A program made the position numbers and the translations under genes. From Myxococcota bacterium (lineage in GTDB: Bacteria; Myxococcota_A; Polyangia; JAAYKL01), in assembly GCA_028278265.1 (NCBI GenBank), contig JANQET010000197.1, forward strand, positions 27,309-91,308: a stretch of 64,000 bases of DNA, read 5' to 3'. Of this stretch, positions 9,972 through 62,079 are shown piece by piece (the first letter of the stretch is position 1; every line of letters begins with the position of its first letter). Under the pieces are notes generated by a model that was given only the letters and a program-made list of their open reading frames with translations, was not told the DNA's origin and did no database searches.

Positions 9972-11729
9972 ATGCCGGAAATCCATCTGAAAAGCAGTCC
10001 CGGTCGCCCTGGAGAGCAGGTGAACCGACTATTATGTTTGGCGCTGGTGCTCATTGTCGCGGTCGCCTGTGGCGAGAGCACAGAGGAGTCAACGCCGGAC
10101 GGGGGAGGGGGCGGAGACGCCGACACGGATACAGATGTTGATTCGGACACCGACGCGGATACGGACGCCGACACCGATGCGGATACGGACGCCGACACCG
10201 ATGCGGATGCGGACGCCGACACCGACGCGGATGCGGACGCCGACACCGACGCGGATGCGGACGCCGACACCGATGCCAATGGGGATGTGAATGTCTACCC
10301 CATTCTCCACGACGAGGTGTTGACCAATCCGGGAATGGGATTTGCGAATTTTCATTTCGGCTGGTGGTGCAATCTCCCGCCGATCAGTTTCACCCCGGCT
10401 GAGTGCGCCGAGCGGGTGGAGGCGAACTGGCCGGTCAACTATCCCGACGCGGGAACATCCTATTTTCGTTGGTTCTGGAGTGAACTGGAGCCGGTGCGCG
10501 GTGAAATCGATTTCGAGATGATCGACACCGCGATTCAATCGGCCAACGCCCTGGGTGAGACGCTCTCATTTCGCGTGATCACGATCAAAGAAAATGAGCT
10601 CGGTGTTCCGGACTGGTTGGTCGGCGCTCCTTACAATGTTCCCGGGGAGTCATTCGCCGGTACGTTTTGGCCGGATTACCGAAACGCCACTTTTTTGGCC
10701 GAGCACGAGCGCTTCATCGCGGCCCTGGGCGAGCGGTACAACGACCATCCCGGGATTGATCACGTCGATATCGGCACGGTCGGGTGTTACGGGGAGTGGA
10801 ACACGGCGTGCATCACGGGCGAGGACACTATTTTTGATATCCTCGATCCTCAGAACGACGCGGACTTTCAGGTCATCGCCGATGCGTATCGCACGATGAT
10901 CGATCACCACGCCGCAGCATTCCCTCAAACCCCGACGGTGATGTTGGGTATCGGCGTCGACTCGGACTGGGAAGTGGCGGTGATGCTCCACGCGATCGAT
11001 CAGGGGGCGGGGTGGCGAGTGGACTGTTGGGGAGACTGGGGCATCTGGGGCGATGCCTGGAACCACATGGAGGATCTCTATCCGGCGATGATCGCCAACG
11101 TCACGGCGCAAAATCCCGATTTTGTCGACGTTTGGAAAACGGCGCCGGTTCAGTTGGAGGTCTGCGGCACCATTGACCAATGGCAGGATATTTACGGTTG
11201 GTCTGCCCAGCCGCCGGACGGTAAAGTGTACAGGACATTTCAATGGGCCCTGGAGCAGCATGCATCTGTGCTGAACGGCAAGTTTCGCGCGCTGCCCGAT
11301 GCCTTCATGACCGAGCTCAACGAAATGCTGAGGAAGAACGGATACCGGCTGGTGATCGATCGGTTCAATCATTTCGGCGAGGTGCGCGCCGGCGAACAGA
11401 CCGAGTTCTACACCAACTGGCGCAACATCGGCGTGGCGCCCAGCTATCGACCGCGGACGGTAACTTATCGTCTGCGCAACGCCACCGCCGAGCGAACGTT
11501 CGCCAGCCCATCGGACATTCGAACCTGGTTGCCGGGATCCTGGCCGGTCAGGGATCAGGTGACGATTCCCGCAGATCTGGCACCGGGCACCTATTGGATC
11601 GACATCGGCCTGCTCGATCGCGCCGGGACAAATCCGACCACTCAACCGCTGCCCCCACTCTACCTGGGTATCGGTGGCCGGCAAGCGGATGGGTGGTACC
11701 AGCTTTCCGAGCTCACCGTCACAGACTGA
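9972..11729 (+). CDS. DUF4832-domain lipoprotein with Asp-rich linker
   Basis: The protein has a lipoprotein signal (LLCLALVLIVAVACG), then roughly 60 residues of alternating Asp with Thr/Ala (linker), then a large domain starting VYPILHDEVLTNPGMGFANF. The sequence contains SYFRWFWSELEPVRGEIDF, HVDIGTVGCYGEWNT and a C-terminal beta domain (YRLRNATAERTF, LAPGTYWIDIGLLDRAG). This is the DUF4832 family, with a glycosidase-like TIM-barrel fold; a role in extracellular polysaccharide handling is inference. ATG 9972 has a good AAGGAGA site, but GTG 10020, preceded by GGAGAG, gives a more standard short signal peptide; both are possible. The linker DNA is a tandem hexanucleotide-like repeat. Confidence 0.8.
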   Translation: MPEIHLKSSPGRPGEQVNRLLCLALVLIVAVACGESTEESTPDGGGGGDADTDTDVDSDTDADTDADTDADTDADTDADADADTDADADADTDADADADTDANGDVNVYPILHDEVLTNPGMGFANFHFGWWCNLPPISFTPAECAERVEANWPVNYPDAGTSYFRWFWSELEPVRGEIDFEMIDTAIQSANALGETLSFRVITIKENELGVPDWLVGAPYNVPGESFAGTFWPDYRNATFLAEHERFIAALGERYNDHPGIDHVDIGTVGCYGEWNTACITGEDTIFDILDPQNDADFQVIADAYRTMIDHHAAAFPQTPTVMLGIGVDSDWEVAVMLHAIDQGAGWRVDCWGDWGIWGDAWNHMEDLYPAMIANVTAQNPDFVDVWKTAPVQLEVCGTIDQWQDIYGWSAQPPDGKVYRTFQWALEQHASVLNGKFRALPDAFMTELNEMLRKNGYRLVIDRFNHFGEVRAGEQTEFYTNWRNIGVAPSYRPRTVTYRLRNATAERTFASPSDIRTWLPGSWPVRDQVTIPADLAPGTYWIDIGLLDRAGTNPTTQPLPPLYLGIGGRQADGWYQLSELTVTD

Positions 11730-15905: not shown

Positions 15906-17789
15906 ATGATCGTACAGCGACCTGCGACCGAGATTCAGGCATCAGCCCACCGAAGAGATGATGCAGAAGATGGTACTGGCCACGATAGAAACTGGTTTGA
16001 CCGACTGATGGAGAACGAGATTATCCGTCAATTGCCCAACCACTTGAGGCAGTATGTGGTCGATCAGAACCATGGGGCCTACACCGCTGCCGACCACGCG
16101 GTCTGGCGCTATGTGCTGCGGCAGAGCTGTTCATTCCTCAAAGACCACGCCCACCGGATCTACCTCGACGGATTGGCCCGAACGGGTCTGCGCATCGACG
16201 CCATTCCATCGATCGAGGAGATGAACCAGATTCTGTCCCGCATCGGTTGGGCTGCCGTGCCGGTCAACGGGTTCATCCCCCCGTCGGCGTTCATGGAGTT
16301 CCAGGCCCACCGCACATTGGTCATCGCGGCGGATATGCGCCAATTGAACCATATCGAGTACACCCCATCCCCGGACATCATTCACGAGGCCGCCGGCCAT
16401 GCCCCGATCATTGCCGATCCTCAGTACGCCGAGTATTTGCGGCTGTTCGGTCAAGTGGGCAGCAAGGCGATGTCCTCCAAAAAGGACTACGAGCTCTATG
16501 AGGCGATTCGGCGGCTGTCGATCCTCAAGGAATCTCCTGGGGCCGATCCCCAGGAGATCGAAGCGGCCAATCGGGATCTATTGGACAAGCAGCGCAATCT
16601 GGGCGAGCCGTCCGAGATGGCCCTGCTCACCCGGCTCCATTGGTGGACCGTGGAGTACGGGCTGATCGGCGAGATGGCCAACCCGCGGCTCTACGGGGCC
16701 GCCCTGTTGTCCTCGATCGGCGAGTCCGCTTCTTGTTTATCGGATGAGGTGAAAAAAATTCCCTACAGCCTGGATGCATTGAACTACCCCTTTGATATTA
16801 CCACCAAGCAACCCCAGCTCTTTGTCACACCGAACTTTCCCTATCTGAACGAGGTGCTGACCGAGTTTGCCGACACCATGTCGTTCAGCCGAGGGGGATG
16901 TGCGGGATTGAACACGGCGGTCGACTGCGGCAACACGGCGACGGCAGTCTACAGCTCCGGGCTCGAAGTGTCCGGGACGTTCGCCGAGGTGCTCTGCGAC
17001 GAGTGGCGCCGTCCGATACTCCTGCGCACCACCGGTCCCACTGCGCTCGCCGTCGAGGGTCGCGAGATCTCCGGGTGCGGTAAATCCCGATTTCCCGCGG
17101 GATTCGTCTCACCCATCGGTATGATGCGCCACTCGACGACGCCCCTCGAATCGCTCAGTGACGGGGAGCTCGCCTCACTCGGCATCGCGACAAACGCCGA
17201 TCTCAGGCTCGACTACGATTCCGGCATTGCGGTTACCGGTCGACTGGAGCGGATCAACCGCGTAGGTGACAATGTGGTTTCGTTGACCGTCGACCGCTGC
17301 CGGATAGGCTTCAATGACAACCCATTGGTCGAGCTCAGCGATCAACCGCTCGAGATCGCCGTGGGGGAACGAATCGTATCGGTGTACGCCGGAGCAGCGG
17401 ACAAGGACGCCTTCGAGCAACCGTCCCGGGTCTCGAATCGGCGCACGATCAAGGTCTGCTATACCGAGCAGCAACAACGGCTGCACGATTTGTATCAGCA
17501 GATCAGACAACAACGGGAGGGGGAGATGAACGAGGAAGTTTTGACCGGAATAGCCCGCGAGGTGGAGCGGGATCATCCGGACGACTGGTTGGCCCTGATG
17601 GAAATCCTCGAGCTGCTGGAGCGACACGATTCAAATGCAGGGCTCGCCTTCCACATTCGGCAGAAACTGAGCGCTCGGGCGGCAACCGAGCAACAATACG
17701 AAAAGCTGATCGCCGATGGGCTGAGACTCATCGACACCAACGAACTGGCCGGGATCGACGAACAGAACAAAAAGGAACGAACAACCTAG
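15906..17789 (+). CDS. phhA: aromatic amino acid hydroxylase (long phenylalanine-4-hydroxylase family form)
   Basis: The 627-residue protein contains the tetrahydropterin-dependent monooxygenase core: DIIHEAAGHAP gives iron ligands His160 and His165, and LHWWTVEYGLIGE gives the third ligand Glu250. The family uses Fe(II), O2 and a tetrahydropterin to hydroxylate phenylalanine (or tyrosine/tryptophan). It is much longer than the compact proteobacterial enzyme of about 260-300 residues. The C-terminal half (from about residue 330) is the extra region known from long bacterial forms, ending in a helical tail. The neighbours supply the pterin cycle: a carbinolamine dehydratase at 17977 and a pyruvoyl-tetrahydropterin synthase homologue at 18501. 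Substrate is not decided by sequence alone. Confidence 0.9.
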   Translation: MIVQRPATEIQASAHRRDDAEDGTGHDRNWFDRLMENEIIRQLPNHLRQYVVDQNHGAYTAADHAVWRYVLRQSCSFLKDHAHRIYLDGLARTGLRIDAIPSIEEMNQILSRIGWAAVPVNGFIPPSAFMEFQAHRTLVIAADMRQLNHIEYTPSPDIIHEAAGHAPIIADPQYAEYLRLFGQVGSKAMSSKKDYELYEAIRRLSILKESPGADPQEIEAANRDLLDKQRNLGEPSEMALLTRLHWWTVEYGLIGEMANPRLYGAALLSSIGESASCLSDEVKKIPYSLDALNYPFDITTKQPQLFVTPNFPYLNEVLTEFADTMSFSRGGCAGLNTAVDCGNTATAVYSSGLEVSGTFAEVLCDEWRRPILLRTTGPTALAVEGREISGCGKSRFPAGFVSPIGMMRHSTTPLESLSDGELASLGIATNADLRLDYDSGIAVTGRLERINRVGDNVVSLTVDRCRIGFNDNPLVELSDQPLEIAVGERIVSVYAGAADKDAFEQPSRVSNRRTIKVCYTEQQQRLHDLYQQIRQQREGEMNEEVLTGIAREVERDHPDDWLALMEILELLERHDSNAGLAFHIRQKLSARAATEQQYEKLIADGLRLIDTNELAGIDEQNKKERTT

Positions 17790-17830
17790 TGCTTTGTCAC
17801 GCATACATTGTCGGGTCAGGATCCCCGATT

Positions 17831-17923
17831 CCCCCTTTGAAAAAGGGGGTTAGGGGGATTTCGTCTCTCGAGCGGCGCCTTGGGGAGGACAAAATCCCCC
17901 CAGCCCCCTTTTCAAGGGGGAGC
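17831..17923. repeat. MITE-like inverted repeat with C5/G5 tracts
   Basis: A sequence of CCCCCTTTGAAAAAGGGGG type followed by TTAGGGGGATTT (17831-17862) is repeated in inverted orientation at 17890-17921 (AAATCCCCCC, then AGCCCCCTTTTCAAGGGGG), so the RNA or single strand could fold into a long hairpin. A related half copy lies at 43642-43680. Elements of this type are scattered between genes in many bacterial genomes. It separates phhA from the dehydratase gene but need not terminate transcription. Confidence 0.7.
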
Positions 17924-17976
17924 TTCTCACCCGACCCTTTTGAATTGACTAGGTACTAGCACAGCGGAGGAGAACG

Positions 17977-18309
17977 ATGGAACCGTTGACCAGCAAGAAA
18001 TGCGTCCCGTGTGAGGGGGACCTCGAGCCACTGACCAGAGCGCAATTTTCCCACCACCTGAATCAAGTCCGCGATTGGACTGTCGTGGAGAGCGACACCA
18101 AACTGGAGCGGGAATTCGAGTTCGGGGACTTCAACCAGGCGTTGGCCTTTGTCAACGGCGTGGGGGAGATCGCCGAGTCAGAAGGTCACCATCCCAACAT
18201 CTACCTGCACAGTTGGAACAAGGTCAAATTAACCGTCTACACCCACGCCATCGGCGGCTTGTCACTCAACGATTTTGTTCTCGCCGCGAAGATCGACGCA
18301 GTTGGATAG
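17977..18309 (+). CDS. phhB: 4a-hydroxytetrahydrobiopterin dehydratase (pterin-4a-carbinolamine dehydratase)
   Basis: The 110-residue protein matches the PCD/DCoH family over its whole length: AQFSHHLNQVRDWTVVE, FGDFNQALAFVNGVGEIAES, then the active-site block EGHHPNIYLHSWNKVKLTVY with its two adjacent His, and THAIGGLSLNDFVLAAKID. It dehydrates the 4a-hydroxy-pterin released by the aromatic hydroxylase encoded just upstream, allowing cofactor recycling. A GGAGGA site lies just before the ATG. A repeat element sits between it and phhA, but both are on the same strand and belong to one pathway. Confidence 0.95.
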   Translation: MEPLTSKKCVPCEGDLEPLTRAQFSHHLNQVRDWTVVESDTKLEREFEFGDFNQALAFVNGVGEIAESEGHHPNIYLHSWNKVKLTVYTHAIGGLSLNDFVLAAKIDAVG

Positions 18310-18470
18310 TCCGTTGCCGGCCCCCTCCCCCCGCCCTCCCCCGGTGGACGTTGGGACATTGGGGGAGGGAGCCAGAGGTCTCGGACCGCCCTTGCTCATT
18401 CTCGCCTCAATTCCCGTTCCCTCCCCCACCGGGGGAGGGCTAGGGCTAGGGCGGGGGCTCGGGACTGGGA
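18310..18470. repeat. intergenic C/G-tract palindromes
   Basis: Two related blocks contain CCCTCCCCC and GGGGGAGGG in inverted orientation (about 18330-18370 and 18418-18449; the latter is a tight hairpin with an ACC loop). They resemble the dispersed palindromic intergenic repeats common in large deltaproteobacterial genomes. They lie between convergent genes and may act as a bidirectional terminator. Confidence 0.5.
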
Positions 18471-18500
18471 CGACCTTCCATTGAGCGACCAGGCGGGCGG

Positions 18501-19751
18501 CTATCGCCTCAGGGTGAAGCGGTTGTTGTCGGTCTCCCAAAGGCGCAGGCGAATCAGCTGGTGTGCCAATCGAGGCTCGAGTTTGGCCCACAGCAGCCGC
18601 ACGATATTTTCCCCGGTAGACGGCTGATCGGTAAACTCGGCCACCTCCTGGTCGAGGTGTCGATAGCGCCAGTCGTCGAGTACACCGTCCAACTCCCGAT
18701 TCAACCCGACCAGATCAGCGACCCTACCGGTGCGCGAATCCAGCGGACCGGTGACCGTGCAGGCGACCCGGTAGTCGTGGCCGTGGCCCGCCGGGTTGTT
18801 GCATTTCGAATAGATGTCCTGGTTCTCTGCCGCGGAAAGATGGGGCGAATGCAGCCGATGGGCCGCCGTGAAACCGGACCGGACGATCATGCGCGTTTCC
18901 CCGGTCTGGCTGTGTTCCACGGCGAAAGCGGGGTTTTCGTGGAGGGTGACGCGACTGGCGCTCGAGGCGGCGTGAAGCCTATCGAACAACAGCCCGGCCA
19001 GTACCTCCGTCGTGTTGGGTTGCGCCTTGAACGCGTCCAGCTCGACCGACAGGTTGCGATGGTCTAGCTCGTCGCGCAGGCGATCGAGAGATTGTCGCGC
19101 CGCTGCTTCGTCGATGAGCTGACCCGTGCGCTGATCGGGCTGACCCGACCAGGTGGCCCGCAATCGGTAGTGGTGTCCATGGCCTGCCGGTGATGCGGCG
19201 CGGCCGAACAAGTCCCGGTTTTGCTCATCGGTCAACCCGGGCACATGGGTACGGCGCGCAGCGGAGAAATCGATCCACAGGTGGCGCTCGACCGACCCGT
19301 TCGAAAAAGCGGTCGCTTCGCTTGAGGCCGATTCGGACAAGTGGCAGACCACCGGTTGGGCAGGGCTGTCGGTGAACAGCGCCCTCGCTTCCTCGAGCAG
19401 GGCCAGGGCCAGGTTTTCGGTGGTCGGATTGATCCGGTCGAACGGCGGGGTATCCCCGTTGAGGAACCGGTGATCGAATCGGCGCTCGAGCAGCCCGCGG
19501 ACGCGGGTTTTAATCTCGGCGAGATTGACCATCATGCCGGTGCGCCGATCCACCTCGCCCTTGAATCCGAAGTTGGCGACAAAGTTGTGACCGTGGCCGT
19601 ACCGACCGTCCGCTTCACGGCCAAAGGTTGACCGGTTTTGGTCATCGGACCAGCCCGGCACACCCAGCCGATGGGAGGCACTGAAGGAGAATCGTCTGCT
19701 AACGGTCAGTCGCATCGTCCCTGTTGTATGACCGATCGTCGCCGAGTGCAA
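18501..19751 (-). CDS. triple-domain 6-pyruvoyl-tetrahydropterin synthase/QueD family protein
   Basis: Three consecutive PTPS domains lie in one 416-residue chain. Domain 1 (about 10-135) has FSASHRL and YGHGHNF; domain 2 (about 145-280) has SPAGHGHHYR but Arg in place of the first zinc His (WIDFSAARRTHVP); domain 3 (about 285-416) has FTAAHRLHSP and CNNPAGHGHDYR, with both zinc sites and the catalytic Cys. Domains 1 and 2 lack that Cys, so only domain 3 looks fully competent. The usual enzyme is a single domain of about 120-140 residues forming oligomers. PTPS catalyses the second step of tetrahydrobiopterin synthesis from dihydroneopterin triphosphate. Its position opposite phhA and phhB suggests supply of the hydroxylase cofactor. 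Confidence 0.88.
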   Translation of the reverse strand: MHSATIGHTTGTMRLTVSRRFSFSASHRLGVPGWSDDQNRSTFGREADGRYGHGHNFVANFGFKGEVDRRTGMMVNLAEIKTRVRGLLERRFDHRFLNGDTPPFDRINPTTENLALALLEEARALFTDSPAQPVVCHLSESASSEATAFSNGSVERHLWIDFSAARRTHVPGLTDEQNRDLFGRAASPAGHGHHYRLRATWSGQPDQRTGQLIDEAAARQSLDRLRDELDHRNLSVELDAFKAQPNTTEVLAGLLFDRLHAASSASRVTLHENPAFAVEHSQTGETRMIVRSGFTAAHRLHSPHLSAAENQDIYSKCNNPAGHGHDYRVACTVTGPLDSRTGRVADLVGLNRELDGVLDDWRYRHLDQEVAEFTDQPSTGENIVRLLWAKLEPRLAHQLIRLRLWETDNNRFTLRR

Positions 19752-19775: not shown

Positions 19776-20696
19776 CTAGGGATTGGCCAAGTCGATGCGT
19801 TCGATCTCTTCGAGAATGTCTTCCACACCCAGCTTGGTCACCTTGGTGATGCGCATCGTCGAGGTCTCCAGGATGAAGTAGGCGCCGAGATCCTGAAACA
19901 GACATTCGCCGTCGCAACCACCAAACCAAATATCCTGCTCTGTGGTGTCCTGGGCACGCCAGCCACCGACCCAGTTGTACTCATCCATCTTGGCGCTGCA
20001 TTCATCTGCCGGGAGGGTGACGCCACTGCTCAAGTTGGGAAAGTACATCCCGACTATGTCGCTGTGAAATCCCTGAATCTCCTCGTACGCGTTGGCGATG
20101 AGCACGAACTGGATCTCACAACCCGGTCATCCGGGTGTGGCTAGACAAAAGACTAGCGACTTGACCTCCCGTTGGTTGAGAAACACCTCGCACATATCCA
20201 GCTTGGCCACATCACCGCCGGTGCTATAGATGGCGGTGAAGTCGATCATGGGTACCGGATTGTCCAGATCCCATCCGTGGGGTCCTGCTGGATAATCCTC
20301 TTCGCAGCTCAAATCGGTATCGATGTCCGAATCGCTGTCACTGTCCCCGTCCGTGTCGCTGTCTGCGTCACTATCTGTATCGGAATCCGCATCAGTATCG
20401 CTGTCACTATCGCTGTCGCTATCGGAATCCGCATCCATATCGGCATCGCCATCAGCGTCAGCATCGCTATCGGAATCTGTATCTGCGTCCCCGTCAGCAT
20501 CGGAGTCCCCGTCTCCGTCCGCGTCCCCGTCGGCATCCCCGTCCCCGTCACCGTCCCCATCCGTATCTCCGTCCGTATCCGCGTCGCCACTCGCAGCGTC
20601 GTTTTCAGCAGGATCGTCGGACTCACCGGAACAGCCGGCAAGCGCAAAGAGGAACAGCCAAACAATCAATCGGTGAATCCTGAGCGGAGATGTCAT
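19776..20696 (-). CDS. candidate selenoprotein: thioredoxin-like lipoprotein with UPGC motif
   Basis: The gene starts at 20696 with a lipoprotein signal ([13 protein letters not shown]), continues as a long Asp/Gly/Ser linker, and enters a thioredoxin-like domain. At 20127-20129 an in-frame TGA follows [10 protein letters not shown], and the same frame continues [20 protein letters not shown] to a TAG at 19776. Reading UGA as selenocysteine gives UPGC, a UxxC redox motif right after the beta strand that carries CxxC in thioredoxins. The downstream half includes [20 protein letters not shown], matching the strand and helix seen in Cys-type relatives at 40744 and 57867. The loop element AGUUC sits 17-21 nt after the UGA. 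A nonsense mutation is the alternative, but the position and motif make it unlikely. Confidence 0.75.
20097..20119 (-). promoter_or_regulatory. SECIS-like element after the UGA of the UPGC gene
   Basis: Counting from the UGA (20129-20127), nucleotides 17-21 are AGUUC, with G18 at 20109. The flanks can pair irregularly: UGAG (9-12) with CUCA (25-28), then two further C-G pairs separated by bulges. The stem is weaker than in the other three genes, but the loop and its distance are identical. Confidence 0.5.
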
Positions 20697-21382: not shown

Positions 21383-21753
21383 GATTCGACCTCCCTTTGG
21401 AAATCACCTTTATTAGGTCTTTGTTAGCACGCAGTGTGCCAAGTCTCCCTCGGCGGGAACCGTTGCAGGCGAGTGAAAGGAGCCGTTGCCCCGTTGCACC
21501 CGACAGTCCGGTGCTCGATAAAAAAATGCCGTCTGAATTCATTTCTTTGTTGCGCCCCCCTGTTGAATGTTTTAAGTTGAATTTATTGTAAATATTAATC
21601 TGATAGTCGAGGACATCAACAGCTATAGAGTTTCTCAACGGGGTAGGGCGTCTTTTGTTGCTAGCGCAGAATGACGCGGAACCAAAGGAGGATTTCGACA
21701 GGATGAGAGTCTTGGCGACCGGGGGTGCCCTTTGCTATCGCGAGGGAGGAAAA
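21383..21753. other. intergenic region between divergent genes
   Basis: About 370 bases separate the lipoprotein at 20831 (minus) from the propeller gene (plus). An AT-rich block at 21540-21610 probably holds promoters. A plus-strand frame from 21655 is continuous with the next gene but carries no signal peptide, so I do not use it as the start. Confidence 0.4.
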
Positions 21754-23670
21754 ATGGAAAACAAAATTAAGTTTAAGTCGTTCGGCTGGGGGTTGTCGGC
21801 CCTTTTATTCATCGCAGGCTGCGAAGGGGAGCCGTCACCGGATGGGGTTTTCGGAGAAAAGGAGCAGGCGCTTCAGCTCTGGAACAAGTCCGTGGCTGTT
21901 TACAAATTCAAACCCGGTGAGATGTTCCTCGTATCCGGCAATCGAATGGTGAAGATCAGGAACGCCGGCGGTACGGGACAGAATGCCTTTGCCCTTTGCG
22001 ATTTCTCCGGAGAGATCACCAGTGTCGAGGGCTATGACTACTATTTGGGGGATCAGGCGTTCGCCGCCAAAATCACGGATGTAGACTATATCGGCGGGCA
22101 GACGCTGATCGCCTTGGCCAGCGGCAAGATGCTCAAAGTGGTCGGCACCGGCGGCACCGGGCACAACATGTTTGCCGTCACCGAAACATCGAGCGGATTC
22201 CAGACCGTTCCGGGGTACAGCTATTTTGTCGGGGCACAGAAGTTCGGCGCAGGGGTGCGGGATGTATCGTACGCTCAGGCCCACAATGTCACCTTCATCA
22301 GCTTGACGGACGGACGAATGCTCAAGGTCACCGGCACGGGGGGTAGCGGGCAAAACATGTTCGCCGTCACCGAAACAGCCACTGGCTTTGAAACCGTTCC
22401 CGGGTACAACTACCGCTTGGGCGATCAGCACTTTTCGTCGTTTGTCACCGACGTCGATTTTATCGGTGGATACACCTTTGTCAGCTTGGCCAACGGCAAG
22501 ATGCTCAAATCCAATGGAGTGGGCGGCACGGGCCACAATATGTTCGCCATCACCGAGAACGCCTCCGGATTCGCCGGAATTCCGGGGTACAATTATCGGG
22601 TCGGGACCCAGGTCTTTAGCGCCTATATCGTCGATGTCACCTACATCCCTGCGCACAACGTGACGTTCATCAGTCTGGCTGACGGCCGGATGTTAAAAGT
22701 GAACGGTGCAGGCGGCAGTGGCTACAATATGTTCGCCGTGACCGAAACCCCCACCGGGTTCGAGTCAGTTCCCGGGTATGCCTACCGGCTGGGAGACCAG
22801 TATTTTTCGACCTATGTCACTGATTTGGATTACGTCGGCGGGTACACCTTTGTCAGCCTGGCCAACGGCAAGATGCTCAAATCCAACGGCACGGGAGGCG
22901 CGGGTCACAACCTGTTTGCAGTAACGGAAAACGCCTCCGGATTCGCCGGCGTCCCCGGCTACAACTATCGCGTGGGGGCTCAAAATCTCGGGGTGAAAGT
23001 GGATGATGTCACCTACATCGCCGAACAGAATGCCCTGTTCGTCAGCTTGGCCGGGACCGGGGTGCTGAAAATCCAAGGCACCGGCGGCAGCGGTTACAAT
23101 ATGTTCGCGGTCACCGAGATAGGGGGCCTTTTCACCGGCCTTCCCGGGTACAACTATTATCTGGGCTACCAGGATTTTCCCCTGGCCGATTGTTACAACT
23201 GCTCCATCCCTCCCTACGATCCGGGGTATTGGAACGGCTGGTTCTCCGGTCAAAAAAAGAACAACTGTTACAACTATGCCAACAACGTGAAGACCAACAC
23301 CTTTGCCCAACCCGGGCGCGCCTCGGGGACGTTTTGTACCTTCAGCAGCTGCATGAATGCCGCGACGATCTCCCTGTATTCGCAAAACGACGGCATCGAG
23401 CCGTTGCCGCCGGGGCAGGAATGCGGGGGCAATGAAGACCTGTTGGCGCTGGTTATTGCGCCGGGGATTGACTACCACTGGTACCGGCAGGATTCGAACG
23501 GCATGTGGTCCCACAAACCGGGGCAGACCAAAGCGACAAATGTCGACAACTCGGGAAATACGATTGGCAACCCGGAGACCGCCGACCGGGGGATTTACAC
23601 CGTGTTTGCCGGCTATTTCTGTTCTTGCTCCGATGAGGAGCAAGGGCAGGGACACGAAATTATCGAATAA
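21754..23670 (+). CDS. repeat lipoprotein with cysteine-rich CYNYA-type C-terminal domain
   Basis: ATG 21754 follows GGAGGAAAA and opens a lipoprotein signal (LSALLFIAGC). Residues about 40-500 hold six to seven repeats of about 70 residues, each with a GKMLKxxGTGGTGHNMFAV core, a GFxxVPGYNYRxGxQ turn and a VTYI..HNVTFISL strand, likely a beta-propeller. The last 170 residues differ: KKNNCYNYANNVKTNTFAQP, paired cysteines (CTFSSC, CSCSD) and DYHWYRQDSNGMWSHKPGQT. The conserved Cys and His suggest a cysteine-hydrolase-like fold (NlpC/P60-like), but that is inference. It is followed 37 bases later by another exported protein. Confidence 0.75.
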   Translation: MENKIKFKSFGWGLSALLFIAGCEGEPSPDGVFGEKEQALQLWNKSVAVYKFKPGEMFLVSGNRMVKIRNAGGTGQNAFALCDFSGEITSVEGYDYYLGDQAFAAKITDVDYIGGQTLIALASGKMLKVVGTGGTGHNMFAVTETSSGFQTVPGYSYFVGAQKFGAGVRDVSYAQAHNVTFISLTDGRMLKVTGTGGSGQNMFAVTETATGFETVPGYNYRLGDQHFSSFVTDVDFIGGYTFVSLANGKMLKSNGVGGTGHNMFAITENASGFAGIPGYNYRVGTQVFSAYIVDVTYIPAHNVTFISLADGRMLKVNGAGGSGYNMFAVTETPTGFESVPGYAYRLGDQYFSTYVTDLDYVGGYTFVSLANGKMLKSNGTGGAGHNLFAVTENASGFAGVPGYNYRVGAQNLGVKVDDVTYIAEQNALFVSLAGTGVLKIQGTGGSGYNMFAVTEIGGLFTGLPGYNYYLGYQDFPLADCYNCSIPPYDPGYWNGWFSGQKKNNCYNYANNVKTNTFAQPGRASGTFCTFSSCMNAATISLYSQNDGIEPLPPGQECGGNEDLLALVIAPGIDYHWYRQDSNGMWSHKPGQTKATNVDNSGNTIGNPETADRGIYTVFAGYFCSCSDEEQGQGHEIIE

Positions 23671-30791: not shown

Positions 30792-31016
30792 CCTGAAATT
30801 CAAACAGCTGCCGTTGATCAACGGGTTGGCGACCAGTGGATTGTCCGCTCGTGCCGGTGTGTCTGGCCCCGGGCTGACAAAATGCTCACTGATATGCAAG
30901 GATACGAGTAAAATATTGTATTGTTTTCTTTAATATTGTACCAAAGTGAGAATGGGGTACTCACCTCAGTTGAGGTCGAGCTCTTTCTAATAACGCGTTT
31001 TGAAAAGGAGAAACAA

Positions 31017-31964
31017 ATGAAACGAGTGGTAGTCGACATAGTTAGGCTGCTCGCCTTGTCTCTTTGTATCGTCAGTTTGACGATCAGCGGCTTGGCGTGC
31101 GGGGACGATTCCGACCCGTCGGGTGGGGATGGTGACAGTGACGCTGATTCGGACGGTGACGGGGATGGAGACGGTGACGGTGACGGGGACGGGGACGGGG
31201 ACAGCGATGCGGATAGCGACGCGGACTCGGACAGTGATTCGGATTCGGACAGCGACAGTGACAGCGATAGTGATGCGGACAGCGACAGCGATTCGGATAG
31301 CGACAGTGACAGCGATTCGGACAGCGACAGTGACAGCGATAGTGATGCGGACAGTGACAGCGATTCGGATAGCGATAGCGACAGCGATTCCGACGCGGAC
31401 TCGGACAGTGATTCGGATTCGGACAGTGATACCGACTCGGACTCCGATGTGGACACCGAGTGCAATGATATCAGTTGGAAACCGGGCACAGTGATGAGCC
31501 AAGGCCAGACCTCTCCCCGCTGGCCCACCTCCGGGTTGCTCGACAGTGACGGGGATCACTCAGTGGAAACCAACGAAGTCCAGTTTGATATGTGTGATTT
31601 GCGGGTGATGGCGTGGGAGAGGGGAATGAAATGCATCTTCATTCCCGTCGGATCACTTGGGTGAGCTAGCTGTCCTGACGAGTTTCGTCAGATTGGAGAC
31701 GCCAAAGACAAGATTATCGACGCGGACTTGTTCCTCTATGCCTTCTATTGGAACTACTCAAATACACAAACCGGATATGATGCAGTTGTTGCCGGCTACC
31801 TCGATGGGTTTGCTCATGCGTATACGGTTGATGACGGGTATGTGATCGATGGGACCCAACACCCCAACCCCTGGATGGGTGTCGTCGATGTCGAGACAAT
31901 GCATGTCGTCCGGCAGGGAAGCCTCGACGTGGATGACGCGATTGCCGCCTGCCACGGTTTTTAA
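31017..31964 (+). CDS. candidate selenoprotein: thioredoxin-like lipoprotein with UASC motif
   Basis: ATG 31017 follows AAAAGGAG and opens a lipoprotein signal ([13 protein letters not shown]). A linker of about 110 Asp/Ser/Ala residues leads into a thioredoxin-like domain. After [10 protein letters not shown] comes an in-frame TGA (31662-31664), and the frame goes on [20 protein letters not shown] to TAA at 31964. Reading UGA as selenocysteine gives UASC at the CxxC position. The second half ends with the family motif [20 protein letters not shown] perfect 7-bp stem with loop GUU follows at 31675-31691. No ribosome site or start codon would support a separate second gene, and the second half alone lacks an export signal. 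Confidence 0.8.
31120..31460. repeat. tandem Asp/Ser-encoding repeat within the UASC gene
   Basis: GACAGCGAT, GATTCG and GACGCG units are repeated head to tail, encoding the SDSDAD linker. Similar blocks lie in at least seven other genes of this window (10105-10285, 20322-20600, 41225-41330, 41800-42105, 44300-44370, 49435-49690, 61712-62010). They are coding repeats, not CRISPR, and prone to length change. Confidence 0.85.
31675..31691 (+). promoter_or_regulatory. SECIS-like hairpin, GUU loop, after the UASC UGA
   Basis: The perfect 7-bp stem CTGACGA (31675-31681) and TCGTCAG (31685-31691) closes on the three-base loop GTT (31682-31684). The loop G is nucleotide 18 after the UGA at 31662, the same distance as in the UPGC and UPSC genes. 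Confidence 0.75.
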
Positions 31965-41427: not shown

Positions 41428-41710
41428 CTCAACGCATAAATGTAGTCCTTTTAATGGATAACCGTCAACGCTCCGGTGATCTTTTCGTGCTGTCTCTAGA
41501 CAAGGGAATATGAAGTGAGGTATACGTAAAATCCGCAGGAGCAAGTGTTCGGAGCAAAAAAGTGACCAATAGCACCGAGAAAAAAATAGTGTGCTGTGAT
41601 CCCCGATTAGATTTGGAAAAATACATAAATATTAAATTCACCTCAGGGGAAATAGTCGCGGTGCAGCTGTCCGTTCGGAAATCTGAAGGATGCAAAAGAA
41701 GGAGTGTTCA

Positions 41711-43621
41711 ATGATACGACACAACTTTTGGGGAATTGTCACAATTTCGATGCTGTTTGCCATGCTCAGCCTAACCGACTGCTCGGGTGACGGCGGAGGA
41801 GGTGGGGATGGCTCTGACGGCGACGCGGATGGCGATGGGGATGTGGACGGGGATGCGGATTCGGACAGCGATTCGGACTCGGACAGCGATGCGGATTCGG
41901 ACAGCGACGCCGATTCGGACAGTGATTCCGATTCGGACAGCGACGCCGATTCGGACAGCGATGCGGATTCGGACAGTGATTCGGACAGCGATGCGGATTC
42001 GGACAGCGATGCGGATTCGGACAGTGATTCGGACAGCGACGCCGATTCGGACAGTGATTCGGACAGCGACGCCGACACGGACTCGGACACCGACGGGGAC
42101 TGCGCGGTTGATGCCCAGCGCATGTGGGACGAGGTGGCCTATCTGGCCGGCGAAGAGTGCAACGGCCGCAAACCGGGCACGCCGGGAGGGGAGCTGGCGC
42201 TCCAGTTCATCGAGCAGGAGATGGAAGCGCTGAACCTGGAACCGGCCGGTGATCCGGGTTCCTACCGGCAGGTGTTCAACACCTTCATGTACGAGGTGGT
42301 CGGTGAGCCATCCCTGTCCATCGGCAACACGACGTTCAGCAGCAGAGATGATTTCAAGGTCCTCTTCCGCTCCGGCTCAGGGGCGATGTCCGGTCAGGTG
42401 GTATTTGCCGGATATGGGCTGGTGATTCCGGCCTACGATCGGGCGGCCTATCCGGATTGTCCGATCAGTGCTAAGGGGTACGATGATTTTGCCAGCCTGG
42501 GAGATCTGACGGGCAAAGTAGTGGTGGTGCTGCGCCACGGCCCCAATGATGACAATCGCATTTTCAATTATTGTCCGGCCGAGCCCAGCACGTGCAACAG
42601 CTCCCACTGTCTGTGGGATTTCGGATACAAGGCGGCCAATGCCAGACGTCACGGGGCGGCGGGGCTGCTCATCGCCCAGGACTATCGACATCGGGGAGAC
42701 AGCGGTCGAATGGGCCTGCACCTCGAGGAGGTGTACCGTCGTGATGATTTCCCGGTGCTGTTCGTCTCCCGCGACAAGCTGGCGCAGGAAATCCCCCAGC
42801 TGCACGCCTGGGCCGCTCGGATCGATAGCACCCTACAGCCGCAAAGCCGCACCCTCGATTTGTCGATCGACTTGGATGTGCAGGTCAAAGCGACGATGGT
42901 GGAGACCGCCAATGTGATCGGTGCGATCACCGGTTCTGATCCGAACCCGGAGATCGTGATCATCGGTGCCCACATGGATCACTTCGGCGTGCAGGACGGC
43001 GAGGTGTACCCGGGCGCGGATGACAACGCATCGGGCACGACCACTGTGCTGGAGGCCGCACGGATGTTCCGCTATTGCGACATCAAGCCCAAGCGCACGG
43101 CCGTCTTTGCCACCTGGAACGCGGAGGAGATGGGGCTATTGGGATCCAAGCACTACGTCAACAGCAGCCCCACCTTTCCGATAGACAAGACAAAGGCCTA
43201 CTTCAACCTGGACATGGTCGGTGTGGGCAGCGGCGGCGGCATGCAGCTCACCGGCGGGGACACGGATAAGAATCGATGGCTTACCAACACCATGAAAAAG
43301 CAGATTGAAGACGAGGGATTCCCCTGGACCGTCTCCCCTTCGGGAGAACACCTGGGATCAGACCATGCGCCGTTCCACAACCAGGGCATCGCCTATTGCT
43401 ACGGTCAGACCCAGTACTGGAGCGACCACGCCGACTACCACGAGCCCACGGACACCTATGACAAAGTAAAGGTCGAGGTGCTGCAACTGACCGCGGATCT
43501 GTTCTGGACCACCATGAGGGCCGTGGCCTTGGGTGAAGAGGTGTCAAAGGACCCGGCATTCACCACGCCGGCACGCAAACCCTACTACGACGGCGCCAAC
43601 CCCCGGCACAACTCCCGCTAG
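41711..43621 (+). CDS. M28-family metallopeptidase lipoprotein with Asp/Ser linker
   Basis: ATG 41711 follows AAGGAGTGTTC; the signal ([12 protein letters not shown]) precedes about 100 residues of Asp/Ser/Ala repeats. The peptidase has an inserted PA domain (about residues 200-370; [31 protein letters not shown]) and M28 zinc ligands: [51 protein letters not shown] and the late His in [14 protein letters not shown]. It should be an extracellular aminopeptidase with two zinc ions. The linker DNA is an 18-nt tandem repeat, likely unstable in length. Confidence 0.92.
41800..42105. repeat. tandem Asp/Ser-encoding repeat in the M28 peptidase gene
   Basis: Units of GATTCGGACAGCGAT and GCGGATTCGGACAG repeat head to tail with few mismatches. 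The repeat encodes the acidic linker between lipid anchor and peptidase. Confidence 0.85.
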
Positions 43622-48950: not shown

Positions 48951-49790
48951 TTACAGGTATTCAAGAATACACTTTTCTTCGACGTCGTTGATCCCATATG
49001 CGCACTTGGGTTTGTGCACCTTCATCGTGGTGAGATCGAGCGCGTTGAACCGACTGTGTCGTTGTTTGGTTTCGGTCGAAAGGTAGTCGTCCATCAGCAG
49101 GCTGGCAGGCTCGGTACGGACAACAGTGAAGTCAACCGACCCCACGTAGTCAGAAAGTTCTTGGGCGTCGTCCGCGGTGGCCGCATACTCGATGACAATA
49201 ACCCCTTGATCAGCATACTTCTCGGCCAGCTCGGCCAATATGGGATGATGTTGTTGGCCGGACGGCTCTATATGCTCACTGAGTTTCATTACGAGCAGTT
49301 TTGCGCCTTGGTCCGAATATTCACAAATCTCCATCGCATTGTCATCTTGATCATAGAGCAGATAGTTTCGCACGACCGAACCCGCAGACCAGTTGTTATC
49401 TGCCGGCGGATAATTGTCACACATCGTGTCGGCATCGCTATCCGTATCGCTGTCGCTGTCGCTGTCACTATCACTGTCCGAATCAGAATCGGCATCGCTG
49501 TCGCTATCACTGTCCGAATCAGAGTCAGAATCGCTATCTGAATCGGAGTCGCTATCGCTGTCGCTGTCACTGTCCGAATCAGAGTCGGAATCGCTGTCTG
49601 AATCGGAGTCCGCATCGCTATCACCGTCGCTGTCACCATCACCATCACCGTCGCTGTCGCCATCTGAATCTGAATCAGCATCTCCTCCTGAACCGGAATC
49701 CGTGTCCGAGTTGCAGGCCCCCATGAAGCACCAGAACATCGCCATCAAACACAAAAGATATGCCCACTTTTGATTATGTTTGTTTTCCAT
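48951..49790 (-). CDS. thioredoxin-like lipoprotein lacking its redox cysteines
   Basis: ATG 49790 follows AAAGGAGATCGA; signal [13 protein letters not shown] long Asp/Ser linker (about 80 residues) precedes [20 protein letters not shown] and the domain. At the redox position it reads [20 protein letters not shown]: no Cys and no UGA. The remainder ([38 protein letters not shown]) follows the CMAC relative at 40744 closely. It is the first gene of the six-gene operon. A non-catalytic binding role, or a scaffold for its operon partners, is inferred. Confidence 0.8.
49435..49690. repeat. tandem Asp/Ser-encoding repeat in the first operon gene
   Basis: On the plus strand the units are TCGCTGTC, TCACTGTCCGAATC and TCAGAATCG types, repeated through 250 bases. 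On the minus strand they encode the SDSDSD linker. Confidence 0.85.
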
Positions 49791-49925
49791 TGGGTCGATC
49801 TCCTTTTTTGCTTTTCGTAAAGAATTTCTGTAAAAATCCATCACTTTGCATGTTCTGCAATCGGCACGATTCACAGTGTCTATATCGGATGTGCTGTTCA
49901 GTATCCATTTTTTCCACTATGCAGA

Positions 49926-59907: not shown

Positions 59908-62079
59908 ATGAAAAACCACAAAGTTAAGAGATACGAGCTTGGTGCTCGAATATCACAGCTGGGAGAATCAGCTATGGGTTTAAGGCTATTGCCACTCATT
60001 TTTTTGATCCAAGTGGGTCCCGCGCTGGCCGGAACGATCACCCTCACTCACGAGCTGCCTTGCGACAATGTATCCGTTGTACGCACCGGTCAATTTGCGG
60101 ATTTCGGCGACCACAATATCTCAGCACTGCCTGGACAGCCCGCGCTACCGCTATTCACCGCTGCGTTCTTGTTGCCGCCAGACACTGAGATGAGCTCGAT
60201 TTCGGTTTCTGTGACCAATGTATCCGAAACTGTCCTGCCCGGTGAATTCGAAGTGCGCCCGGCCCTTCCCCCGTACACAGTGGACGGACCGGTGTGGCCC
60301 CCCGGCAGAACGATTCGCGACGGTAAAGACGTGGAAGTCTTTGCCACGAACGCGTTTCTCCCGAGCGACTACCTTCAGCGGGCCTCACCGAGTCAGAAGC
60401 GCGTGTACAAGCTGCTCAGAGTGACGGTAAATCTGGCCAAGTACAATCCGGTGTCAAAAAAGCTCGTGCTGATGACCCGCGGAAAACTGGTCATCAGCGC
60501 TGACGGTGAGTCAAAAGGAGACACGAGCTATCCGGTCCCAACAAATTTCAGAACCCTGATCAAGCCCCTGGTTGTCAATTACGATACCGTGAGCCCGATG
60601 TACGATGCGGCCTATTCATTTACCCGAGACACCACCTACGCGATCATGGCTGACGACGCATTCGTGGCCGGTTCGGCAGTGCTCGGGGAGTTCATTGAAT
60701 CAAAGGAGAAACGGGGCTACCAGGTTCAAGTGATTGGTCCGGACGACTGGGGCGGCGGCACCGGAGATGCGGCCGCAGACAACATCAGAGCCTATCTGCA
60801 ACAACACTACGAGTCGGAGACGATGGAGTTTGTGATGTTTCTCGGCGCGCCCAAACCGACCGATGGCACCGTGCCGATGAAGATGGCGGGGCAGGGGGCT
60901 ATCGGCGCGGCTCCCTCTGATTTCTACTACGAGCAGTTGACCGGATCCGTGGACACCGACCGTGACGCGGAGATTTCAGCGGGCAGAATTCCGGTGTACG
61001 ACGAGAACGGCATTGCCGTGGCCGACAAGATCCTCCAAAAGATCATCGCCTATGAAAACGCATCCCAAAACAATATCGGTTGGCGCACCGACTCCCTGTA
61101 TGCGGCAGTTCCCTACGACGATCAGACCCCGGGGTCATACCTGTTCGAAGCGATGCGAGAGAACCACATTGAGCCGAACGGGTGGCCGTTGTACCGCATT
61201 TACAGCGACAACCACGGCAATCCCGATGAGACAAACTGCACTCAACAAGCTGTCACCGATGCCTGGTCGGGCCGCGATTTCGGCGTGGTGATCTGGATGA
61301 CCCACGGGAGCGAAACCTCGGCAACCGGCATCATGACCTCTGAAGGCACGACTGAGCTGGGCAACGAGTACAACCCGATTGTCTTTATGGGCAGCTGCTT
61401 GAATTCCAATATCGAGACCGAAAACAACCTGGGATACGAGATGTTGAAGAATGCGGCCATCGCCACCATCGGAGGGACCAGACAAACGCTGTACCAGATC
61501 GGTCAACAGGAGTTCGAATCGAGCATTTCCAATCAAGGCTTGATGTACCAGTTCCAAGGAGCGCTCGTCGAGGAGCTGCCGGTCGGTCACGCGCTCAATC
61601 AAGCCAAGGGCGTGCCCGCTGATTCATCGACAGACATTCTGATGCGAAATATCTACTCGTTCATGGTCATGGGTTGTCCGGAAGTGAGTCTATCTTCCCA
61701 CTCGAACGGCGGTGGAGACAGCGATGCCGACTCTGACTCAGATTCCGACGCCGATGCTGACACTGACGCCGATAGTGACGGCGACACTGATTCGGACTCT
61801 GACGCAGACGCTGATGCCGATAGTGATAGCGACGCAGACGCGGACGCTGATGCCGATGGCGACGGCGATGGCGATTCGGACTCGGATGCTGATGCCGATG
61901 GTGATAGCGATTCGGATGCGGACGCGGACGCCGATGGTGATGGTGATTCAGACGACGATAGCGATGGTGATTCAGACGACGATAGCGATGGTGATGACGA
62001 AGCGGATAGTGATACGGGTTGCGGCTGTCGAACCACGGGTCGACCCACGAACCGAAACTTGGTCTCTTTCCTGATCTGA
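59908..62079 (+). CDS. C25 (gingipain-like) cysteine peptidase with Asp/Ser-rich C-terminal stalk
   Basis: The start at 59908 or at 59974 ([20 protein letters not shown], better signal) gives an exported protein. An N-terminal propeptide-like beta region (about 25-230) precedes the catalytic domain: [37 protein letters not shown] with the catalytic His and [20 protein letters not shown] with the catalytic Cys. About 105 residues of Asp/Ser/Ala/Gly repeats follow, ending [19 protein letters not shown], which looks like a shortened MYXO-CTERM-type sorting tail. It should be a secreted, surface-attached protease. Confidence 0.88.
61712..62010. repeat. tandem Asp/Ser/Ala-encoding repeat in the C25 peptidase gene
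   Basis: GATGCCGAT, GACGCAGACGCT and GATAGCGATGGTGATTCAGA units repeat, including an exact duplication near 61948-61990. The repeat encodes the acidic stalk before the Cys-rich tail. Confidence 0.85.

What the first reader, a model, noticed from the sequence alone, without database searches (positions are those of the whole stretch)
15906..19751. Compact pterin cycle: long aromatic hydroxylase, dehydratase and triple PTPS
PhhA, PhhB and a three-domain PTPS homologue lie together, covering cofactor synthesis, use and recycling. The PTPS chain has three fused domains, of which only the third keeps all zinc and catalytic residues. Domains 1 and 2 may be structural, as the enzyme is normally oligomeric. 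I do not know of a described triple fusion.
Basis: partly seen in the sequence, partly recalled or inferred. Interest (0 to 1): 0.75.

Follow-up and report, generated by a model that had tools for sequence, protein, structure and literature searches.

The report
Triple-fused pterin synthase, split active site
Three copies of a pterin-making enzyme are fused into one protein beside a phenylalanine hydroxylase; two copies appear to have lost their own active site and kept only the parts that help the third, so a normally three-fold symmetric enzyme seems reduced to one shared active site.

Summary
The finding is real: a long PhhA (15906-17789 +), a PhhB (17977-18309 +) and a three-domain PTPS (18501-19751 -). 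The fusion is not an artefact: I aligned 32 distinct triple-PTPS proteins, 31 of them from Verrucomicrobiota searches, where 60 of 197 relatives carry it, often in a run hppD-hmgA-folE-tPTPS-SDR with long phhA nearby. Domain 3 keeps the zinc histidines, catalytic Cys and pterin-binding Glu, but in 32/32 it has lost the Asp-His pair of the PTPS triad, which is intersubunit in characterised PTPS. Domains 1 and 2 have lost the Cys in 32/32 but keep Asp-His (63 of 64). The same division of labour occurs in 28 two-gene loci (A upstream of B) in the window's own phylum; all 30 single-gene PTPS examined have both halves. Best explanation: a heteromeric PTPS with one composite active site, fixed as A-A-B in one chain, making 6-pyruvoyl-tetrahydropterin for the hydroxylase. 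The split is shown in sequence; assembly, activity and the Asp-His donor are inferred. GTP cyclohydrolase I is present twice in the genome; no sepiapterin reductase could be assigned. Novelty: new variant of a known enzyme.

The parts
18501..19751 (-). Triple PTPS (tPTPS), 416 aa from TTG; probable true start ATG at 19715 (404 aa)
   Evidence: one open frame, three PTPS Pfam matches, relatives start at residue 13
19325..19715 (-). PTPS domain 1 (about residues 13-142): Zn His H27, H53, H55 kept; Glu46 at the Cys42 position; Asp93-His94 kept; E140 kept
   Evidence: Cys absent 32/32, Asp-His present 32/32; the other 31 proteins have lost the domain-1 zinc ligands
18905..19295 (-). PTPS domain 2 (about residues 153-282): R166 at the His23 position, Ala185 at the Cys42 position; H191, H193, D230-H231, E272 kept
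   Evidence: Cys absent 32/32, His23 replaced 32/32, Asp-His 31/32
18504..18899 (-). PTPS domain 3 (about residues 285-416): H298, C317, H323, H325, E406 kept; Asp88-His89 replaced by R362-Y363
   Evidence: closest to animal PTPS (2e-26, structural Z 17.7); Asp-His absent 32/32
15906..17789 (+). Long aromatic amino acid hydroxylase (PhhA, NF010657/PRK14056 type), 627 aa; HEAAGH (160-165) and VEYG (E250) iron-ligand motifs present
   Evidence: NF010657 721.9 bits against a cut-off of 346
17977..18309 (+). Pterin-4a-carbinolamine dehydratase (PhhB), 110 aa
   Evidence: Pfam Pterin_4a 102.5 bits against a cut-off of 26; best NCBIfam equivalog 109.7 against 137 (below cut-off)

Best explanation
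The protein is a single-chain, hetero-trimer-like 6-pyruvoyl-tetrahydropterin synthase. Its three T-fold domains most likely pack side by side as the three subunits of a normal PTPS trimer do. Only domain 3 holds a zinc site, catalytic Cys and pterin-binding Glu together. It has given up its own Asp-His pair and takes it from a neighbouring domain (most likely domain 1, inferred from conservation), which in turn has given up its Cys. One composite active site would replace the three of a trimer. It would convert dihydroneopterin triphosphate from GTP cyclohydrolase I to 6-pyruvoyl-tetrahydropterin, feeding tetrahydrobiopterin synthesis for the neighbouring phenylalanine hydroxylase, with PhhB recycling the cofactor. 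Shown: the fusion, its recurrence, the complementary residue losses, the same split in two-gene A/B loci, and the gene context in relatives. Inferred: assembly, zinc occupancy, activity, product, and the donor of Asp-His.
For: (1) In 32 distinct triples domain 3 has Cys 32/32 and Asp-His 0/32; domains 1 and 2 have Cys 0/64 and Asp-His 63/64; 30/30 single PTPS have both. (2) The characterised PTPS triad is intersubunit: Burgisser 1995, title as cited in PMC7546909 and PMC2229834; Cys is the ionising nucleophile (PMC2229834). So complementary halves on different domains can still make one site. (3) The same split occurs in 28 two-gene (once fused) loci of the window's phylum: A has Asp-His and no Cys, B has Cys and in 24/28 no Asp88; every B locus had an A beside it. 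(4) On a tree built without the catalytic columns Cys loss maps once and Asp-His changes map five times; B of family f53 still mostly has Asp-His, so its loss in domain 3 and in the core B group looks independent. (5) Fold: domain 3 against human PTPS Z 17.7, 1.9 A over 133 residues; domains 1-2 together match tandem T-fold uricases, Z about 12.9, 219 residues. (6) Context in Verrucomicrobiota: folE within 1.5 kb in 25/31 and the SDR in 25/31; hppD-hmgA-folE-tPTPS-SDR in full in the three loci read, long phhA nearby. (7) GCHI x2 and a separate QueD in the window's genome, so the triple is not needed for queuosine.
Against: No coordinates were available, so the distance from C317 to D93-H94 or D230-H231 was not measured. 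The model rests on two sequences and pLDDT falls below 50 at 46-51 and 315-320, exactly the Cys loops. Characterised PTPS are hexamers with each site lined by three monomers (PMC7546909), so Asp-His might come from a second chain. Grouping of A with domains 1 and 2 is weak (86/73) and of B with domain 3 very weak (33/61); a separate triplication is not rejected (AU p 0.41). No sepiapterin reductase could be assigned in the window's genome among 21 SDR hits. An Asp-His-independent domain 3 is not excluded.
Confidence: 0.74

Rival explanations
1. Domain 3 is a self-sufficient PTPS and domains 1 and 2 are only scaffolding; Asp-His was lost in domain 3 because it is dispensable or replaced by the new W-R/Q-D motif, and its retention in domains 1 and 2 is structural.
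For: Domain 3 keeps zinc, Cys and Glu; it carries its own conserved replacement W361 (32/32) plus R/Q-D/N. Asp-His is kept in domain 2 too, where at most one donor is needed.
Against: 30/30 single-gene PTPS keep both halves. Asp-His disappears only in domain 3 and in B genes, whose partner has lost Cys, and does so more than once on the tree. The domain-1 loop D-H-x-F-L-N is invariant 32/32 although that domain's own site has no zinc ligands in 31 of 32.
Confidence: 0.14
2. Two different active sites: domain 3 as PTPS, and domain 1 in this window as a Glu-type (PTPS-III-like) site that would make 6-hydroxymethyl-dihydropterin for folate.
For: Window domain 1 alone among 32 keeps all three zinc histidines and has Glu46 at the Cys position. 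In Plasmodium PTPS a Cys-to-Glu change at the active site gives 6-hydroxymethyl-dihydropterin (PMC2229834).
Against: Glu is at this position in all 32 domain 1s, 31 of which have no zinc ligands, so the Glu need not be catalytic. The Glu-to-His spacing is 7 (Cys-to-His 6 in rat PTPS). The loop is poorly modelled.
Confidence: 0.08
3. It serves another pterin or deazapurine route (QueD-like, or a non-BH4 cofactor such as tetrahydromonapterin).
For: TIGR03367 (QueD) also scores above its cut-off on the whole three-domain protein (115.8 against 89.25); PhhA of some bacteria uses other tetrahydropterins (own knowledge).
Against: The QueD score adds up three domains. Domain 3 has the C-x5-H-G-H spacing of animal PTPS and is nearest to it in sequence and fold. 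The genome has its own QueD gene. Relatives place the triple between GCHI and an SDR.
Confidence: 0.1

Closest known systems
Animal/bacterial 6-pyruvoyl-tetrahydropterin synthase (PTPS-II; human 3i2b, rat 1b66/1gtq)
   Same: Fold and sequence of domain 3 (phmmer 2e-26; Z 17.7), zinc histidines, C-x5-HGH, pterin-binding Glu
   Different: Known enzymes are homo-oligomers of one domain, each subunit carrying both Cys and Asp-His; here they are divided among fused paralogous domains
Plasmodium PTPS (PTPS-III; 1y13)
   Same: Glu in place of Cys in domain 1
   Different: Separate homomeric enzyme with intact zinc site; domain 1 lost its zinc ligands in 31 of 32 triples
Urate oxidase and other tandem T-folds
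   Same: Two fused T-fold domains in one chain; matches domains 1-2 of the model (Z about 12.9)
   Different: Different chemistry, no zinc; two domains, not three
Long aromatic amino acid hydroxylase NF010657 (PRK14056)
   Same: PhhA of the window is a plain member (721.9 bits)
   Different: None found; the extension beyond the catalytic domain is part of that family
Two-gene A/B PTPS loci found here (e.g. L143 5565-6382, followed by folE)
   Same: Same split of Cys and Asp-His
   Different: Two adjacent genes instead of one A-A-B chain; A has also lost the Glu in most cases and usually His23; no published description found

Membership tests
PTPS family (PF01242 / TIGR00039) | Score above curated cut-off | tested here: met
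   PF01242 217.3 (cut-off 22.4), each domain over it; TIGR00039 145.9 (cut-off 125.5)
PTPS family (PF01242 / TIGR00039) | Zinc triad His23/His48/His50 | tested here: met
   Domain 3 H298, H323, H325 in 32/32; domain 2 lacks His23; domain 1 only in the window
PTPS family (PF01242 / TIGR00039) | Complete Cys-Asp-His triad within one type of subunit | tested here: not met
   No domain has both Cys and Asp-His in any of 32 triples
PTPS family (PF01242 / TIGR00039) | Conversion of dihydroneopterin triphosphate to 6-pyruvoyl-tetrahydropterin | not testable with these tools
   Needs enzyme assay
QueD (TIGR03367) | Short Cys-to-HGH loop seen in the class's QueD proteins | tested here: not met
   Domain 3 has KCNNPAGHGH, as in animal PTPS; the QueD proteins of the class have a shorter loop such as CERLHGH
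PTPS-III (Glu-type) | Glu in place of Cys with intact zinc site | tested here: inconclusive
   Met by residues in window domain 1 (E46 with H27, H53, H55) but zinc ligands absent in the other 31; spacing differs
NF010657 aromatic amino acid hydroxylase | Score above curated cut-off | tested here: met
   721.9 against 346
Pterin-4a-carbinolamine dehydratase | Score above curated cut-off | tested here: met
   Pfam 102.5 against 26; NCBIfam equivalogs below their stricter cut-offs
De novo BH4 pathway in the window's genome | GTP cyclohydrolase I present | tested here: met
   Two copies, C79 and C73
De novo BH4 pathway in the window's genome | Sepiapterin reductase present | tested here: inconclusive
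   21 SDR hits at 25-34% identity, none assignable; in Verrucomicrobiota an SDR is adjacent in 25/31

The most novel reading that the evidence does not exclude
There is an unrecognised class of obligately heteromeric PTPS in bacteria, in which the intersubunit catalytic triad has been divided between paralogous partners by complementary loss (Cys lost once in A, Asp-His later lost repeatedly in B), occurring as two-gene A/B pairs in one phylum and as one-chain A-A-B pseudo-trimers in Verrucomicrobiota and in the window's genome: a natural series showing how a homomeric enzyme becomes a locked heteromer with a single active site.
Probability: 0.6. Interest if true: 0.75.

Novelty: new variant of a known kind. 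Interest (0 to 1): 0.66.

Why it matters
Why homomeric enzymes turn into complexes of degenerate and catalytic paralogues is a standing question. Here the shared active site of PTPS lets each partner lose the half that the other supplies, and intermediate states survive in living lineages: single gene with both halves; f53 pairs where A has lost Cys but B mostly keeps Asp-His; core pairs where both halves are lost reciprocally; A-A-B fusions. The loss of residues can be read, placed on a tree and tested by single changes. It also adds a probable dedicated tetrahydrobiopterin route to phenylalanine catabolism in many Verrucomicrobiota, and warns that residue-based annotation of any single domain would call all three inactive.

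Tried and rejected
Assembly artefact: rejected by 32 distinct triples in independent genomes. Plasmid origin: no match in plasmids. Chance: not an issue for family matches at 1e-29 to 1e-217. Structure of PhhA: pLDDT 44.9, pTM 0.33, discarded and not used. Distance measurement in the PTPS model: the tool returns no coordinates, so it was not possible. Literature: no paper found on triple, fused or heteromeric PTPS in the held open-access library; absence there does not prove absence, since most subscription papers are missing. The independent-pairs sign test had too few pairs to be informative. Hydroxyphenylpyruvate dioxygenase in the window's genome: only a weak partial match below cut-off, so the downstream catabolic genes seen in Verrucomicrobiota are not shown here. 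Rfam: nothing in the window.

Full report
What is there. The window is part of a 91 kb contig of a 7.67 Mb, 516-contig genome. The stated span holds a 627 aa aromatic amino acid hydroxylase (15906-17789 +), a 110 aa pterin-4a-carbinolamine dehydratase (17977-18309 +) and, on the other strand and converging on them, a 416 aa protein with three PTPS domains (18501-19751 -). The hydroxylase is a plain member of the long NF010657 family (721.9 bits, cut-off 346). The PTPS frame probably starts at the ATG at 19715, where its relatives start.

The fusion is real and recurrent. A scan of named genomes gave a Verrucomicrobiota contig with an independent triple PTPS, 46% identical over nearly its whole length. 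Whole-genome searches gave the triple in 3 of 387 genomes drawn from that phylum and in 60 of 197 relatives of one of them, some of these as partial copies at contig ends. In the window's own class it was found only in the window's genome among 317, so horizontal transfer is likely. The proteins are 45-46% identical across the two groups, so any transfer is old.

Context. In three Verrucomicrobiota loci read in full the genes run hppD-hmgA-folE-triplePTPS-SDR on one strand with a long phhA nearby. In the short flanks of 31 Verrucomicrobiota triples folE was seen in 25 and the SDR in 25 (counted). This is a phenylalanine-to-homogentisate cluster with what looks like its own tetrahydrobiopterin synthesis. 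A single-gene PTPS of the window's class sits in an equally telling PTPS-folE-SDR run (L078). In the window's genome GCHI is present twice, one copy in a folate-like cluster and one near dnaK/efp/aspS; QueD is separate. A sepiapterin reductase could not be picked out among 21 SDR hits, and no full hydroxyphenylpyruvate dioxygenase was found.

The residues. Two papers cite the work that named the PTPS site as zinc plus an 'intersubunit catalytic triad' (Burgisser 1995, as listed in PMC7546909 and PMC2229834); that the triad is Cys42-Asp88-His89 in rat numbering, Cys on one subunit and Asp-His on another, is my own knowledge. I aligned 200 PTPS domains and read seven positions. In 32 distinct triples domain 3 has the three zinc histidines, Cys and Glu in all, and Asp-His in none (R/Q/E then D/N/Y instead, after an invariant Trp). 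Domains 1 and 2 lack Cys in all 64 and keep Asp-His in 63. Domain 1 has Glu at the Cys position in all 32 and, except in the window, has lost the zinc ligands. The automatic alignment misplaced the Glu133 position in some domain 1s; the protein alignments show E140 kept. Thirty of 30 single-gene PTPS have both Cys and Asp-His.

The same split in two genes. In other classes of the window's phylum 28 loci hold two PTPS side by side, A upstream of B, once fused. A always has Asp-His and no Cys (one truncated copy could not be read at the Cys); B always has Cys, and in 24 of 28 Asp88 is gone. Every B locus held an A. folE is adjacent in several of the loci read, directly downstream of B in L143. 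The four B that keep Asp88 belong to one family, f53, which forms one of the two basal branches of the B group.

Tree. With the catalytic columns removed, A, B, D1, D2 and D3 are each one group with strong support. The best tree joins A with D1 and D2 (86/73) and B with D3 (33/61), both short of firm. A separate triplication is not rejected (p 0.41). Masked profile scores place D2 with A, D1 slightly with A, and D3 with single PTPS or B rather than A. On the tree Cys loss needs one change and Asp-His five. Because f53 B proteins mostly keep Asp-His, its loss in D3 and in the core B group appears independent. That the Asp-His pair is lost only where a partner without Cys is present is the strongest argument for a shared site.

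Structure. AlphaFold2 on the window and one relative gave pTM 0.80, mean pLDDT 79, three domains. Domain 3 matches human PTPS (Z 17.7, 1.9 A, 133 residues); domains 1-2 together match the tandem T-folds of uricase (Z about 12.9, 219 residues, 4.0 A), consistent with side-by-side packing. The Cys loops of domains 1 and 3 are the least confident parts, and no coordinates were returned, so the composite site was not measured. Which domain donates Asp-His is open: the domain-1 loop is invariant (D-H-x-F-L-N, 32/32) while domain 2's flanks vary and one domain 2 has Asn-His, which favours domain 1. The known hexamer, whose sites are lined by three monomers (PMC7546909), leaves a donor on a second chain possible.

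Verdict. It is a new variant of a known enzyme. The mechanism is inferred from a consistent pattern of residues, not from an assay.

Noticed in passing
L116 (G1149), L135/L108 (G1136), L136/L109 (G907), L143 (G899) and other loci L108-L134: Two adjacent PTPS genes (A then B, once fused in frame) with reciprocally lost catalytic residues, in several families of the window's phylum; followed up as part of the argument, but their pathway genes were only partly examined.
   Followed up: partly
L111, L113, L115, L116 (family f53): Intermediate state: A has lost Cys but keeps His23 in three of them, and B keeps Asp88 (one has Asp-Gln).
   Followed up: partly
window 17826-17930 and 18320-18455: Two intergenic palindromic repeat stretches (CCCCCTTTNAAAAAGGGGG type between phhA and phhB; CCCTCCCCCACCGGGGGAGGG between phhB and the PTPS gene); no further copies in the window, far more than shuffles give.
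   Followed up: partly
window 9972-11729, 20127-20696, 30921-31664, 41690-43621, 48951-49874, 59908-62079: Many secreted or lipoprotein-like ORFs with long Asp/Ser/Gly/Ala-Asp runs (DADSDSD), several with a Cys-containing signal peptide; repeated theme of this genome region.
   Followed up: no
L008 and L014 (G026, G042): PTPS-like domains with a GYGQPCENVHGH motif (Pro at the aligned Cys position, Cys next to it) inside long open frames of 1038 and 466 aa.
   Followed up: no
window 21655-23670: 671 aa secreted protein with five or more repeats of a KMLKxxGxGGxGxNxFAxTE unit.
   Followed up: no
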